This document shows, one piece after another, positions 7,668-39,046 of a DNA stretch of 64,000 bases. Position numbers and translations under genes: made by a program. The notes beneath the pieces are model-generated. The model was given only the letters and a program-made list of their open reading frames with translations. It had not been told where the DNA came from and searched no databases. Location of the stretch: the NCBI GenBank assembly GCA_014138095.1, contig JACGXE010000012.1, positions 1 through 64,000 on the forward strand, in the 5' to 3' direction. How positions within the stretch are numbered: position 1 is the stretch's first letter; the number at the start of each line of letters is the position of its first letter. Source of the DNA: Ochrobactrum sp. RH2CCR150 (GTDB lineage Bacteria > Pseudomonadota > Alphaproteobacteria > Rhizobiales > Rhizobiaceae).

Positions 7668-8864
7668 ATGCCCCTCCGCAAGCGACTCGTTATCCAGTTC
7701 ACAGGCTATGAAGGCCTGCACCCCAAAGCCGTCCGCGTGCGCCACGCGCAAGTCCTGAAAGACTTCGACAAGCTCTGGAACGCCAAGACCAAGCTGCCGC
7801 CCATGACGGACGAGCCGGACAATAGCGGCACGACGTTGGCTGTCACTGAGGGCAATGGCTGGCGAACGGAGACCGAGTTTTGCCAGTTCGGCACTGCGGA
7901 TATTTTTGACGACTACGCCGCGCGCTCGACGCCCAGGCGGATGCTGACCGGCTTCTTCGCCTTCATGAACATCCTGTTTACCGGCACGCTGTGGCGCTAT
8001 CTCACGACGAGTTGGCGCTTCGTGCTGTTCTTCCTGTGGCCATTCCTGCTGTCGCTCGCCATTTTGGGCGTTGCAGCCCTTATCGCCACAGCGCCGATGC
8101 TGGCCGGTTTTTCAGCGCTGCATCTTCTCTGGTCCGCGCCGCTCGCAGCCTTCCTTGCAACGCTTCTCGTGCGCAGGCCCGGCGACAAGTTCTTCATGTC
8201 CTATCTGCTCGACGACTGGTCGGCAGCCTATGACCGCATTCATGACCGCAACGCGAAGCTGAACCAGCGCCGGACGGCCTTTGCCGAGACGCTGATGCGC
8301 AAGATCGAAGAAAGCCATGCGGATGAAGTCATCATTGTTGCGCATAGTCTCGGCACTGTGCCCGCTATCGAGGCGCTTGCCACCGTTCAGCGTCAGCGCC
8401 CCGACCTTCTGAAGCTGCAGCCGGTATCGCTGCTGGCCGTCGGCTCCTGCCTGATGATGATCGCCCTGCATCCACGAGCGAAAGCGCTCCGCGAGGATGT
8501 GCGTGTGGTGCTTGAGGATAGCCCGGTCCTATGGTCGGAATTCCAGGTGCTGACAGATATCATCCATTTCTACGGTTCCGACCCAGCCAGCGCCCTTAAG
8601 ATCAAGGCGGTCAATCCGCCACTCATTCATCGCATCCGTTTCAAGAACGTCCACAGCGAAAACCGCTACAAGCGCTCCAAGGGCAACTTCTTTCTGATGC
8701 ACCTTCTCTATGTGCGCGGGGCCGAGAAAAAGAACTTCTACGATTTCGGCATGTTCCTGCATGGCCCGTTTTTCTTCCGCGAGCTGATGACCACGCATAA
8801 AGGAAAAGCCGCCCCTCTCGATGAAGAAGGGCGGCTTCCGGTATCCTATCGCGAAGCGGCTTGA
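7668..8864 (+). CDS. Uncharacterised membrane protein with a lipase-type serine motif
   Basis: 398 residues from MPLRKRLVIQFTGYEGL; a TTG seven codons upstream is the alternative. The first 90 residues look soluble, then two or three hydrophobic helices lie at about 92-165 (WRFVLFFLWPFLLSLAILGVAALIA and following). The C-terminal half carries VIIVAHSLGTVPAIEAL near 222-238. AHSLG is the nucleophile elbow of alpha/beta hydrolases, so Ser227 could be catalytic. I do not recognise the family. A membrane-bound esterase or lipase is plausible but not shown. It ends 16 bp before a Bru-RS-like element. Confidence 0.8.
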   Translation: MPLRKRLVIQFTGYEGLHPKAVRVRHAQVLKDFDKLWNAKTKLPPMTDEPDNSGTTLAVTEGNGWRTETEFCQFGTADIFDDYAARSTPRRMLTGFFAFMNILFTGTLWRYLTTSWRFVLFFLWPFLLSLAILGVAALIATAPMLAGFSALHLLWSAPLAAFLATLLVRRPGDKFFMSYLLDDWSAAYDRIHDRNAKLNQRRTAFAETLMRKIEESHADEVIIVAHSLGTVPAIEALATVQRQRPDLLKLQPVSLLAVGSCLMMIALHPRAKALREDVRVVLEDSPVLWSEFQVLTDIIHFYGSDPASALKIKAVNPPLIHRIRFKNVHSENRYKRSKGNFFLMHLLYVRGAEKKNFYDFGMFLHGPFFFRELMTTHKGKAAPLDEEGRLPVSYREAA

Positions 8865-8880
8865 TGCCGTTCAGCCTTAG

Positions 8881-9020
8881 AGCCTGAATCAAAAAGCGAC
8901 ATGTGTGTGCGAAAATGGTGATTTTCGAGTACCGGAGCGGAGCGTACTTTTGGGTCCGTGAGCACCGGAATGAAGGAAATTGCCATTTGCAGCCACACAG
9001 GGCGACTTTTGGAACAGGCT
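8881..9020. mobile_element. Bru-RS-like palindromic element, copy 1
   Basis: A 140-bp imperfect palindrome with ends AGCCTG and CAGGCT. The 5-bp sequence CTTAG flanks it directly on both sides (8876-8880 and 9021-9025), as expected of a target-site duplication. Internally it shares GCGAAAATGGTGATTTTCGAG and CGTGAGCACCGGAATGAAG with the copy at 38.1 kb. It contains no gene. It resembles the Bru-RS palindromes known from Brucella, a name I assign from memory. The right-hand duplication contains the stop codon of the MaoC gene. Confidence 0.8.
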
Positions 9021-9021
9021 C

Positions 9022-9498
9022 TTAGTCTTTTGGCGGCTCTACAACGGCAATCGTCAGCCAGGTGGCCGTCAAGGCGGGTTTCAGCGAGTTCTCGATTTCG
9101 AGCGTCACATCGTAATAGTTCACGACTCGTCCCGATGGGCGAATATCGGCATCGGCCAGCTTGAAGCGCGCACGCACCCGCGCGCCGGTCTTGACCGGTG
9201 ACTGGAAGCGCAGCTTGTCGAAGCCGTAATTGATGCCCATCGTTGCGCCTTCCAGCATGGGCAGCGCTTCATAGGCCAGCGTGGACAAAAGCGACAGCGT
9301 CAGAAAGCCATGCGCAATGGTGCCGCCAAAGGGCGTTTCCTTGGCAGCGCGTTCCGGATCGACATGGATGAACTGGTGATCGTCGGTCGCATCCGCGAAC
9401 TGGTTGATCATTTCCTGTGTGACTTCGCGCCACTCGGAACATCCGATTTCCGTGCCGATTGCGTCGCGCAACTGATCGAGCGTGATTGCGTCTTTCAT
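9022..9498 (-). CDS. MaoC-like (R)-specific enoyl-CoA hydratase-type hot-dog protein
   Basis: 158 residues from MKDAITLDQLRDAIG; the upstream extension of the frame runs into a repeat and is not coding. The hydratase motif is clear: DATDDHQFIHVDPERA with the catalytic Asp and His, then PFGGTIAHGFLTLSLL. Such enzymes hydrate trans-2-enoyl-CoA to (R)-3-hydroxyacyl-CoA, in fatty acid or polyhydroxyalkanoate metabolism; the acyl chain is unknown. It lies between two Bru-RS-like elements. Its TAA stop falls in the CTTAG duplication of copy 1. Only about 57 bp remain upstream before copy 2, so the promoter must be within that stretch or in the repeat itself. Confidence 0.9.
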   Translation of the reverse strand: MKDAITLDQLRDAIGTEIGCSEWREVTQEMINQFADATDDHQFIHVDPERAAKETPFGGTIAHGFLTLSLLSTLAYEALPMLEGATMGINYGFDKLRFQSPVKTGARVRARFKLADADIRPSGRVVNYYDVTLEIENSLKPALTATWLTIAVVEPPKD

Positions 9499-9555
9499 TC
9501 GCTGGCCATTCCTGCTGAACTGATTTGCCCTTTGTTTAACCCATAGCGCGCTTAG

Positions 9556-9694
9556 TGTCTGAATCAAAAAGCGGCAGGCCGTGGCGAAAATGGTGATTTC
9601 GAGAACCGGAGCGCAGCGTACATTTGGGTACGTGAGCACCGGAAGCGCAGAAATTGCCATTTGCAGCCCGGCATGGCGACTTTTGGATCAGACA
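9556..9694. mobile_element. Bru-RS-like palindromic element, copy 2
   Basis: A 139-bp imperfect palindrome with ends TGTCTGA and TCAGACA, flanked by direct CTTAG repeats (9551-9555 and 9695-9699). It is more diverged from copies 1 and 3 than they are from each other, for example GGCAGGCCGTGGCGAAAAT and GCAGCCCGGCATGGCGAC. The right duplication contains the TAA stop of the HAD gene. The element lies between the HAD stop and the MaoC start, so it may shape MaoC transcription. Confidence 0.8.
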
Positions 9695-9695
9695 C

Positions 9696-10367
9696 TTAGG
9701 CGGCAACCAGAATTTCCCGCGCAATGTCATCCCAATGCGTGAAAACCTGATGCGCGCCCTTGGACGAAAGGCGCTCGGCATGGCCGTCATAGGTATGTGC
9801 GCCGCCGGTATAACCAAAAGCGGTCATACCCGCAGCAATCGCGCCTTCGACACCGAAGGGTGAATCCTCGATCACCACGCAGCGCGACGGATCGACGCCC
9901 ATCTTGTCGGCGGCGAACAGAAACAGATCCGGCGCAGGCTTGCCGCGCTTCACCATGGTGGACGAATAAACCGCATCGCCGAAATAATGGTTGATGCCTG
10001 TCTTTTCCAGACTGAAGGCAATGCGCTCGGGATGCGAGGACGAGGCCACGCAACGCTTCTGCGGCAGTTCACGCAGGAAGCTGGCGATACCAACGGTCGG
10101 CTCCAGCGCTTCCGCGAACAAGGTCCGGGTGGCAGGCCAGAATTCGCCATCGACGCCATCCGGCAGGCGATGGCCGGTCATATCCTCGATCATCTTCATT
10201 ATATCGGCCTGTTTCATGCCGATTCCCTTGGCCACCGTGCCCTGCGGCAGTTCCATGCCGTGATTGGCATAGACGCGCTCGAAAGCGAGGCAGGACAGAA
10301 CTTCGCTATCGACGAGAACGCCGTCACAATCGAAGATCACAAGATCAAAGGGGGATACACTGCTCAT
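9696..10367 (-). CDS. HAD-superfamily phosphatase (beta-phosphoglucomutase-like subfamily)
   Basis: 223 residues. Motif I is FDCDGVLVDSE, with the nucleophile Asp13 and the general acid Asp15. Motif II Ser is in CVASSSHPERIAF, the motif III Lys is in MVKRGKPAPDLFLFAADKMG, and motif IV is CVVIEDSPFGVEGAIAAG. The helical cap after motif I places it with phosphoglycolate phosphatase, beta-phosphoglucomutase and sugar-phosphate phosphatases. The substrate is unknown. It is divergent from the Rossmann-SAF oxidoreductase gene (229 bp apart) and upstream of the MaoC gene, from which a Bru-RS element separates it. The stop codon lies in that element's target duplication. Confidence 0.9.
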   Translation of the reverse strand: MSSVSPFDLVIFDCDGVLVDSEVLSCLAFERVYANHGMELPQGTVAKGIGMKQADIMKMIEDMTGHRLPDGVDGEFWPATRTLFAEALEPTVGIASFLRELPQKRCVASSSHPERIAFSLEKTGINHYFGDAVYSSTMVKRGKPAPDLFLFAADKMGVDPSRCVVIEDSPFGVEGAIAAGMTAFGYTGGAHTYDGHAERLSSKGAHQVFTHWDDIAREILVAA

Positions 10368-38070: not shown

Positions 38071-38092
38071 TTTCAGCCTGACCTGTCCTCAA

Positions 38093-38231
38093 AGCCTGAC
38101 TCAAAAAGCGGCCTGTGTGTGCGAAAATGGTGATTTTCGAGTACCGGAGCGGAGCGTACTCAAAGTACGTGAGCACCGGAATGAAGAAAACTGCCATTTG
38201 CAGCCACACAGGGCGACTTTTGGAACAGGCT
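38093..38231. mobile_element. Bru-RS-like palindromic element, copy 3, inserted in a hairpin
   Basis: A 139-bp imperfect palindrome with ends AGCCTG and CAGGCT, direct repeats CTCAA on each side (38088-38092, 38232-38236), and close identity to copy 1. The outer flanks ACCTGTCCTC (38081-38090) and GAGGACAGGT (38238-38247) are reverse complements. Removing the element and one duplication rebuilds a single hairpin, ACCTGTCCTC AAA GAGGACAGGT. The right duplication holds part of the histidine-phosphatase stop codon. Confidence 0.85.
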
Positions 38232-38232
38232 C

Positions 38233-38847
38233 TCAAAGAGGACAGGTTTCCGGCAGGTGGTTCAGCCCCTGATTGCGGCGCTCGAACTGCACGTCGGTCT
38301 TTTCCCCGTCGCGGGTGATGCGCAGCACATAGATGCTGTCGAAATCGTCGCCTGACCATTTGGGCACGTCATGCTTGTCGCCGCCATTCTCTTTGACGAT
38401 ATTGCGCACCAGCTTGACGATCTGCTTGTGCTCCCAACCGACCAGAACGGTCGCATTGCGATAGGCGGGTGCTTCCAGCGCTTCTTCCAGCTTGTCGATA
38501 TCTTCGAAACCAAAACGCGTATCGACCGGCAGGCCGAGCGCAATCGCGGTTGGCTCGACAGTCGCCAGCGGACGCACATAGGCATAGGTCTCGCCCTTGT
38601 CGTCCTTCTCTTCGGACGGATTGGGCGCGAAAATCGCCGACGGTTTGCCGAACTGTTTGGCGATGACCGCTGGCAGTTTCAGCGAGCGGTTCAGGCCGCG
38701 GCAGCTCAGCTGCCCCAATCCTGCTTCCGGCTTTTCGCCATGGCGGACAAAGATCACGGTTTGTGTGGAGGATGCCGCAGCAGCAGTGCTTTGGGCGGCG
38801 TTGAGGGCAAAGAGCGAAACCAGAGCGGTCAAAATCAACCGACGCAT
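38233..38847 (-). CDS. Exported histidine-phosphatase-family protein
   Basis: 204 residues from MRRLILTALVSLFALNAAQS; an ATG seven codons earlier is possible. A signal peptide is followed by VIFVRHGEKPEAGLGQLSCRG, where RHGE is the phosphatase motif I with the catalytic His. Motif-like ATVLVGWEHKQIVKLV is a later His candidate, though the usual second His context is diverged. The fold suits small phosphatases; substrate unknown. The TGA stop lies in the target duplication of Bru-RS copy 3, convergent with engB. Confidence 0.82.
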   Translation of the reverse strand: MRRLILTALVSLFALNAAQSTAAAASSTQTVIFVRHGEKPEAGLGQLSCRGLNRSLKLPAVIAKQFGKPSAIFAPNPSEEKDDKGETYAYVRPLATVEPTAIALGLPVDTRFGFEDIDKLEEALEAPAYRNATVLVGWEHKQIVKLVRNIVKENGGDKHDVPKWSGDDFDSIYVLRITRDGEKTDVQFERRNQGLNHLPETCPL

Positions 38848-39046
38848 TGAAACAACTTTCTTCATCATACAGTGAAACTATAAAACCACATTTACATAGA
38901 ACATTGGCGTGAGCATGCGAAGCATGTGTCCAGCCAACTATTCGTGAAAAATAAGTCGCGAGACCGTTTTCGCGGATTCCATTTGAATCAAAACCGGTCT
39001 AGAAAAGCCTGCCTCTTCTGCCCTGTCGCCAGCCATGGAGCCCGCG

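What the first reader, a model, noticed from the sequence alone, without database searches (positions are those of the whole stretch)
8876..9699. Bru-RS-like elements with 5-bp target duplications that contain neighbouring stop codons
Copy 1 (8881-9020) and copy 2 (9556-9694) each have direct CTTAG repeats at their ends, which look like target duplications. In both cases the right-hand CTTAG holds, on the minus strand, the TAA stop of a gene (MaoC at 9022-9024, HAD at 9696-9698). Copy 3 at 38.1 kb does the same with CTCAA and a TGA stop. Three of three suggests these elements favour a short sequence that includes a stop codon, so genes are spared and their 3' ends re-formed by the duplication. 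Brucella Bru-RS elements are known as palindromes and IS711 targets; I do not recall a stop-codon preference being described.
Basis: partly seen in the sequence, partly recalled or inferred. Interest (0 to 1): 0.72.

Follow-up and report, generated by a model that had tools for sequence, protein, structure and literature searches.

The report
Hairpin transposons inserted at stop codons
These are small non-coding hairpin transposons, probably moved by an IS5-type transposase that inserts at TNA, a three-letter site that always reads as a stop codon on one strand, and in the pool studied they sit on gene stop codons more often than expected and nearly always in one orientation.

Summary
The three repeats are real MITEs (141-142 bp hairpins). 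The duplication is 3 bp, TNA, not 5 bp: the outer C and G of CTTAG are target preference plus the element's own end bases. Relatives carry uninterrupted sites at all three places. Family A's ends match an intact IS5-family element of the same genus with TNA flanks; family B's partner was not found. TNA (TAA, TGA, TTA, TCA) is always a stop trinucleotide on one strand, so part of the pattern is built in. In a pool of 207 copies at 151 sites the duplication is a real gene stop at 42 sites. At 67 testable exact-duplication sites, 26 are stops against 13-14 expected (P about 1e-7); close to gene ends the excess is small. The unexpected part is polarity: at 38 of 42 stop sites the element's right end faces the gene (P 6e-8), against 12 of 29 when the nearest gene end is 1-60 bp away; eight of eight later stop sites agree. 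So the 'stop preference' is mostly TNA chemistry and gene sparing, plus an unexplained orientation rule not met in five targeted paper searches.

The parts
8880..9021 (+). copy 1, family A MITE, 142 bp, GAGCCTGAATC...GGAACAGGCTC
   Evidence: hairpin MFE -64 kcal/mol, z -7.1
8877..8879 (+). left target duplication TTA of copy 1
   Evidence: single copy in G006 and G027
9022..9024 (-). right target duplication TTA of copy 1 = TAA stop of the MaoC gene
9555..9695 (+). copy 2, family B MITE, 141 bp, GTGTCTGAATC...GGATCAGACAC
   Evidence: hairpin MFE -72.4, z -7.5
9552..9554 (+). left target duplication TTA of copy 2
   Evidence: no insertion in 9 of 13 relatives read
9696..9698 (-). right target duplication TTA of copy 2 = TAA stop of the HAD gene
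38092..38232 (+). copy 3, family A MITE, 141 bp
38089..38091 (+). left target duplication TCA of copy 3
   Evidence: single in G006 and G027
38233..38235 (-). right target duplication TCA of copy 3 = TGA stop of a minus-strand gene
38082..38090 (+). left stem CCTGTCCTC of a terminator-like hairpin split by copy 3
   Evidence: sequence; uninterrupted in G006 and G027
38238..38246 (+). right stem GAGGACAGG of the same hairpin
   Evidence: sequence
9022..9498 (-). MaoC-like gene ending in copy 1's right duplication
   Evidence: PF01575 E 1.7e-27
9696..10367 (-). HAD hydrolase gene ending in copy 2's right duplication
   Evidence: PF00702 E 2.1e-25
38233..38868 (-). 211-aa ORF ending in copy 3's right duplication
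   Evidence: no Pfam or NCBIfam hit with the 174-aa form

Best explanation
The repeats are MITEs: non-coding palindromes with 7-bp ends (A: GAGCCTG, B: GTGTCTG) moved in trans by an IS5-family transposase that inserts at C-TNA-G-like sites and duplicates TNA. Family A is moved by a ~930-bp IS whose two ends match its two ends crosswise; family B probably by an unseen relative. TNA is the set TAA, TGA, TTA, TCA, so any gene stop that is TAA or TGA is itself a target, and insertion there leaves the gene whole with its stop duplicated. Where the stop is TAG inside TTAG, the element's terminal G re-forms it. Survivors pile up at stops because the stop is a legal target, spacers are short with few TNA sites, and insertions in genes or before promoters are lost. 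The orientation rule (right end facing the gene whose stop is hit) I ascribe, with low confidence, to selection: in the other orientation the gene's mRNA would carry the more stable plus-strand hairpin directly behind the stop. Shown: duplication, empty sites, IS ends, stop excess, orientation bias, strand difference in predicted folding. Inferred: that this transposase moves them, and the cause of the orientation bias.
For: 3-bp TNA: 103 of 207 copies have TNA on both sides and 93 have the same TNA; in the first 88 copies N agrees in 50 of 53 both-TNA copies against 28% with shuffled partners. Empty sites at all three window copies. IS partner: left end GAGCCTGTTCCAAAA = family A right end, right end GAGCCTGAATCA = family A left end; TNA flanks; a 287-aa ORF of one copy is IS5-family transposase NF033580 with DDE_Tnp_1 and DUF4096. 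IS1031 group: TNA and 3-bp repeat in a passage of PMC12016507. Stop excess: 26 of 67 sites, expected 13.1 or 13.8. Orientation: 38R:4L at exact stops, later set 8R:0L; in convergent pairs 17R:2L, in tandem pairs 20R:2L, one neighbour only 1R; nearest gene end at 0/-1 bp 50R:5L against 1-60 bp 12R:17L, Fisher 2e-6; by ORF length alone 45R:10L. Hairpin: 16 of 36 pairs have two-sided changes among 18 copies; plus strand more stable in 78 of 80 sampled sites, G-U pairs 5.0 against 1.3.
Against: 112 of 207 copies have unequal 3-mers, read as decay. Family B's IS was not found: among 499 held sequences seven pairs of B-like ends lie 600-1700 bp apart and only one matches well, a 713-bp element in L390 without a recognisable transposase; the end pattern gave 1 match in 297 order genomes and many MITE ends in 35 genus genomes, each of those not opened one by one. 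The autonomous IS shows no stop overlap: 0 of 27 insertion sites, though a facing gene end was called at only 9 of them; 16 had both ends, 9 of those equal flanks. Near gene ends the stop excess is weak (within 15 bp 26 versus 21.3). The selection reading of orientation predicts loss of left-facing copies, but right-facing ones are also about three times half the null (my division numbers), and copies 1-15 bp from a stop show only 8R:5L.
Confidence: 0.8

Rival explanations
1. Target recognition itself is polar: the transpososome prefers stop codons, or a feature of gene 3' ends such as translation termination or the coding/non-coding border, and docks with its right end toward the gene.
For: The bias is sharp: 50R:5L at 0/-1 bp but 12R:17L at 1-60 bp, and right-facing stop insertions exceed the null, not only left-facing ones lacking. 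Present in both families (A 19:1, B 19:3) and in later data (8:0).
Against: No clear asymmetric motif: flanks of non-stop sites are near-symmetric and AT content is equal left and right; stop sites fold like other gene ends. The IS itself showed 0 of 27 stop sites.
Confidence: 0.3
2. Nothing beyond TNA chemistry and purifying selection: stops are hit because TNA includes TAA/TGA, and polarity comes from base preference at N (TCA over TGA in element orientation).
For: Non-stop exact sites have TCA 7, TGA 4; stop sites at TGA are all in the TCA orientation (15:0) while TAA stops are 8R:3L.
Against: A 7:4 preference hardly gives 15:0, and the TAG class needs TAA in element orientation yet is also right-facing 13:3.
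Confidence: 0.25
3. Positive selection for use as a 3' end: right-facing copies give the gene a terminator or mRNA-protecting hairpin.
For: Right-facing transcripts have the stem then TTTTTGATTC, the other strand TTTTGGAAC (sequence); copy 3 splits a terminator-like hairpin.
Against: The simple terminator scan found none in 8800-9800 (it is blind to stems this long), and copies 1-60 bp downstream show no right bias (12R:17L), where a terminator would serve as well.
Confidence: 0.15
4. They are Bru-RS1/Bru-RS2 copies.
For: Intergenic palindromes of the same genus; Bru-RS is listed as a stem-loop family of B. melitensis.
Against: Length mostly 141-142 bp against 103-106 bp. No Bru-RS sequence was available to compare.
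Confidence: 0.1

Closest known systems
MITEs of the IS5 family, IS1031 group
   Same: short non-coding element, ends shared with an IS5-family IS, TNA target with 3-bp repeat
   Different: almost entirely one covarying hairpin; strong polarity at stop codons; several end types on one core
Bru-RS1/Bru-RS2 of Brucella (Halling and Bricker 1994, seen only as a citation)
   Same: intergenic palindrome in the same genus
   Different: 103-106 bp in the papers seen, known as IS711 (YTAR) targets; sequence identity not tested
RUP of S. pneumoniae with IS630-Spn1 (PMC2229807 passages)
   Same: intergenic MITE thought to be mobilised in trans by an IS with matching ends
   Different: TA target, other IS family, no rule about neighbouring gene stops in the passages seen
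MITEAba12 / ISAba12 (PMC6382973 passages)
   Same: MITE with IS-matched ends and target duplications; one copy fused to a gene 3' end
   Different: 9-bp duplication, AT-rich; that copy makes a premature stop rather than sitting on one

Membership tests
MITE of an IS5-family (IS1031-group) element | 3-bp TNA target duplication | tested here: met
   93 of 207 copies equal TNA, 103 TNA on both sides; group rule from PMC12016507 passage
MITE of an IS5-family (IS1031-group) element | terminal inverted repeats shared with an autonomous IS | tested here: met
   family A: 15 and 12 terminal bases identical to the two ends of the IS; family B: partner not found
MITE of an IS5-family (IS1031-group) element | partner encodes IS5-family DDE transposase | tested here: met
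   NF033580 E 3.4e-70, DDE_Tnp_1 E 3.9e-33
MITE of an IS5-family (IS1031-group) element | partner belongs to the IS1031 group | tested here: inconclusive
   TNA flanks and a two-ORF form in L058 fit; no group tree was made
MITE of an IS5-family (IS1031-group) element | observed transposition in trans | not testable with these tools
   only filled and empty sites compared
Bru-RS1/Bru-RS2 | length 103-106 bp | tested here: not met
   97 of 207 are 141 bp, 51 are 142 bp; two are 107-109 bp
Bru-RS1/Bru-RS2 | sequence identity to published elements | not testable with these tools
   no passage seen gave the sequence
Bru-RS1/Bru-RS2 | IS711 insertion target | not tested
   no search for IS711 was made

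The most novel reading that the evidence does not exclude
The insertion machinery recognises translation stop codons (or the exact coding border) with polarity, so the element lands behind genes in a fixed direction, re-forming the stop by duplication or with its own terminal G: a gene-sparing, 3'-end-directed transposition.
Probability: 0.2. Interest if true: 0.85.

Novelty: new variant of a known kind. Interest (0 to 1): 0.55.

Why it matters
It turns a curious stop-codon coincidence into a testable rule. A TNA-type transposase makes stop codons natural safe harbours, which could help explain how bacterial MITEs reach many copies with little damage. The 9:1 polarity at stops is not predicted by TNA chemistry: either it shows how a strong hairpin next to a stop harms a gene, or it is an orientation-sensing target choice that I did not meet for IS5-type elements in the searches made here.

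Tried and rejected
5-bp CTTAG duplication: rejected by the pool (17 of 73 exact-duplication sites have C..G). Own-genome DUF4096 transposases as partner: in eight loci I recognised no matching end pair in the motif list. Family B partner: no match in 15 transposase loci; L369, the one match, was checked only by the end-pair script. Sequence or composition asymmetry as cause of polarity: the excess of C at +3 at stop sites is near the gene background (18 against 14 expected; one search stopped on an error after printing part and was rerun); AT content is symmetric at non-stop sites. Special hairpins at the empty stop: MFE as background. Terminator scan: none. Stop-free frames on the right-facing strand: frame 0 is open in 79 of 207 (38%, against 17% in shuffles) but all three frames in only 6, and 1 of 207 copies lies inside a called gene, so I did not build on it. 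The left bias at 21-60 bp (19L:4R) is partly the far side of convergent pairs; in tandem pairs it is 8L:4R. Rfam: no match at gathering score in the window.

Limits of the counts. Rows dropped: 155 duplicate places, 93 partial matches, 5 at locus edges; orthologous copies merged (207 copies to 151 sites). Stretches were chosen from the listed, best-scoring matches to the window copies, so the pool leans to close relatives. The later set is 29 sites absent from the first 122 but from the same group of genomes. Gene calls come from my own codon-score finder, not a standard program; one search repeats the polarity test by ORF length.

Papers: passages only of PMC2267715, PMC2266754, PMC10800456, PMC3163539, PMC2229807, PMC6382973, PMC3281130, PMC12016507; all others as search listings, among them PMC3189936 and PMC2516522, which I did not open. 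'Not met in print' rests; one search lists six papers with Bru-RS, of which I opened four.

Full report
What is there. The window lies in a 5.54-Mb genome of 40 contigs. Three near-palindromes of 141-142 bp sit at 8880-9021 (family A), 9555-9695 (family B) and 38092-38232 (family A). Each folds into one long hairpin far more stable than shuffles (both strands of copies 1 and 2, minus strand of copy 3). Among 18 copies of families A, B and C, 16 of 36 predicted pairs have changes on both sides that keep the pair, so the hairpin is conserved as a structure. In 80 sampled sites the plus strand folds more stably in 78, with 5.0 G-U pairs against 1.3.

Duplication. Of these, 103 have TNA on both sides and 93 have the same TNA. 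Equal 3-mers occur in 95 of 207, against 6 of 207 for 3-mers 20 bp further out. C before and G after the TNA are preferred but both occur in only 17 of 73 exact sites. Relatives show single sites: CTTAG in G006 and G027 for copy 1; one HAD stop in nine of the 13 genomes read for copy 2 (CTTAG in G033); an intact CCTGTCCTC-AAA-GAGGACAGG hairpin in G006 and G027 for copy 3.

What moves it. Own contigs C14, C18, C29 and C33 break inside an element starting GAGCCTGTTCCAAAAAGG. Relatives hold it whole at about 930 bp, with the other end GAGCCTGAATCATAATG. These two ends match the two ends of family A crosswise. A 287-aa ORF of one copy is an IS5-family transposase. Sixteen copies had both ends; nine have equal 3-bp flanks, one has TTGA on both sides, and six differ, five of those being TNA on both sides. 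TNA with 3-bp repeats is the published rule of the IS1031 group (PMC12016507 passage). No transposase gene with family B ends was found; the best pair of B-like ends, 713 bp apart in L390 with TGA on both sides, encloses no recognisable transposase.

Stop codons. Whether it is the real stop of a gene is not. The duplication is an exact gene stop at 42 of 151 distinct sites, and in the own genome at 5 of 11 pooled copies. At 67 sites with exact duplication and both neighbours called, 26 are stops; placing each insertion at random among the TNA sites of its spacer, stops included, gives 13.1, or 13.8 when weighted by context (P about 1e-7). Restricted to TNA within 30 bp of a stop it is 26 against 18.1 (P 0.0013), within 15 bp 26 against 21.3 (P 0.02). 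So much of the excess is nearness to gene ends, with a modest local residue. Without the three window copies the first-set test still gave 20 of 55 against 10.1-10.5. Family B carries most of it (15 of 23, 7.3-8.2 expected; A 11 of 44, 5.6-5.8 expected).

Polarity. At exact stops the element's right end (GGAACAGGCTC or GGATCAGACAC) faces the gene at 38 sites and the left end at 4 (P 5.7e-8); all three window copies follow this. It holds in convergent (17R:2L) and tandem pairs (20R:2L; one further site has one neighbour). Where the stop is TAG made from TA of the duplication and the element's first G, it is 13 to 3. When the nearest gene end is 1-60 bp away it is 12R:17L, beyond 60 bp 11R:12L. 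The rule was seen in the first 122 sites (30R:4L) and then held in 29 later sites (8R:0L). It does not depend on my gene finder: by ORF length alone (60 codons) it is 45R:10L. Neither flank composition, codon-border bases nor local folding explains it; a preference for TCA over TGA could explain part.

Explanation. I hold that these are MITEs moved by a TNA-type IS5 transposase; stops are legal, harmless targets, and selection does most of the rest. Polarity may come from counter-selection of the stronger plus-strand hairpin right behind a stop, but right-facing copies are in excess and not only left-facing ones missing, so polar targeting stays open. The cause is not shown.

Limits. The pool is heavy in a few species and is not a census. 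No Bru-RS sequence was available, so identity with Bru-RS is open; length speaks against it.

Noticed in passing
L012-L018, L020 (family C) and L019, L023, L024, L028, L029 (family D), own genome: The same hairpin core occurs with at least two further end types (GCACTACAG.. and variable, self-complementary arms; L015 in that range is family B), as if one chassis had taken ends suited to different transposases.
   Followed up: partly
L390 805-1517: A 713-bp element with family-B-like ends (14 of 16 matching) and TGA on both sides encloses a 92-aa ORF without a Pfam hit; its left TGA is the last codon of the ORF at 331-804, with the B right-type end facing it.
   Followed up: partly
L491 1501-1641: A 141-bp family A copy with TGA on both sides lies in frame inside a tRNA-synthetase-like gene: 141 + 3 bp adds 48 codons and the frame stays open.
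   Followed up: partly
L030; L011/L022; L015/L027: Copies interrupted inside by another short repeat; at L030 it is a palindrome beginning GCATAGTCCCGAAAAG.
   Followed up: no
window 9022-9660 minus: The minus strand of copy 2 opens a 212-aa frame running into the MaoC gene, so annotation may fuse element and gene.
   Followed up: no
window 38082-38246: Copy 3 lies in the loop of a terminator-like hairpin between convergent genes; one stem also encodes the last codons of the minus-strand gene.
   Followed up: partly
L199, L212, L214, L349, L356: Intact IS copies with TNA on both sides but a different middle base, perhaps from recombination between IS copies.
   Followed up: no
80 sampled family A/B sites: G-U pairs are kept mainly on one strand (5.0 against 1.3 per fold), hinting that the plus-strand RNA hairpin is under selection.
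   Followed up: partly
L100, L128 (Mesorhizobium albiziae), L130 (Aquibium), L146 (Nitratireductor), L136 (Pseudochrobactrum): Family B copies with exact TNA duplications occur outside Brucella/Ochrobactrum; L100, L130, L136 and L146 are right-facing at stop codons, and L128 has a gene stop at each flank.
   Followed up: partly
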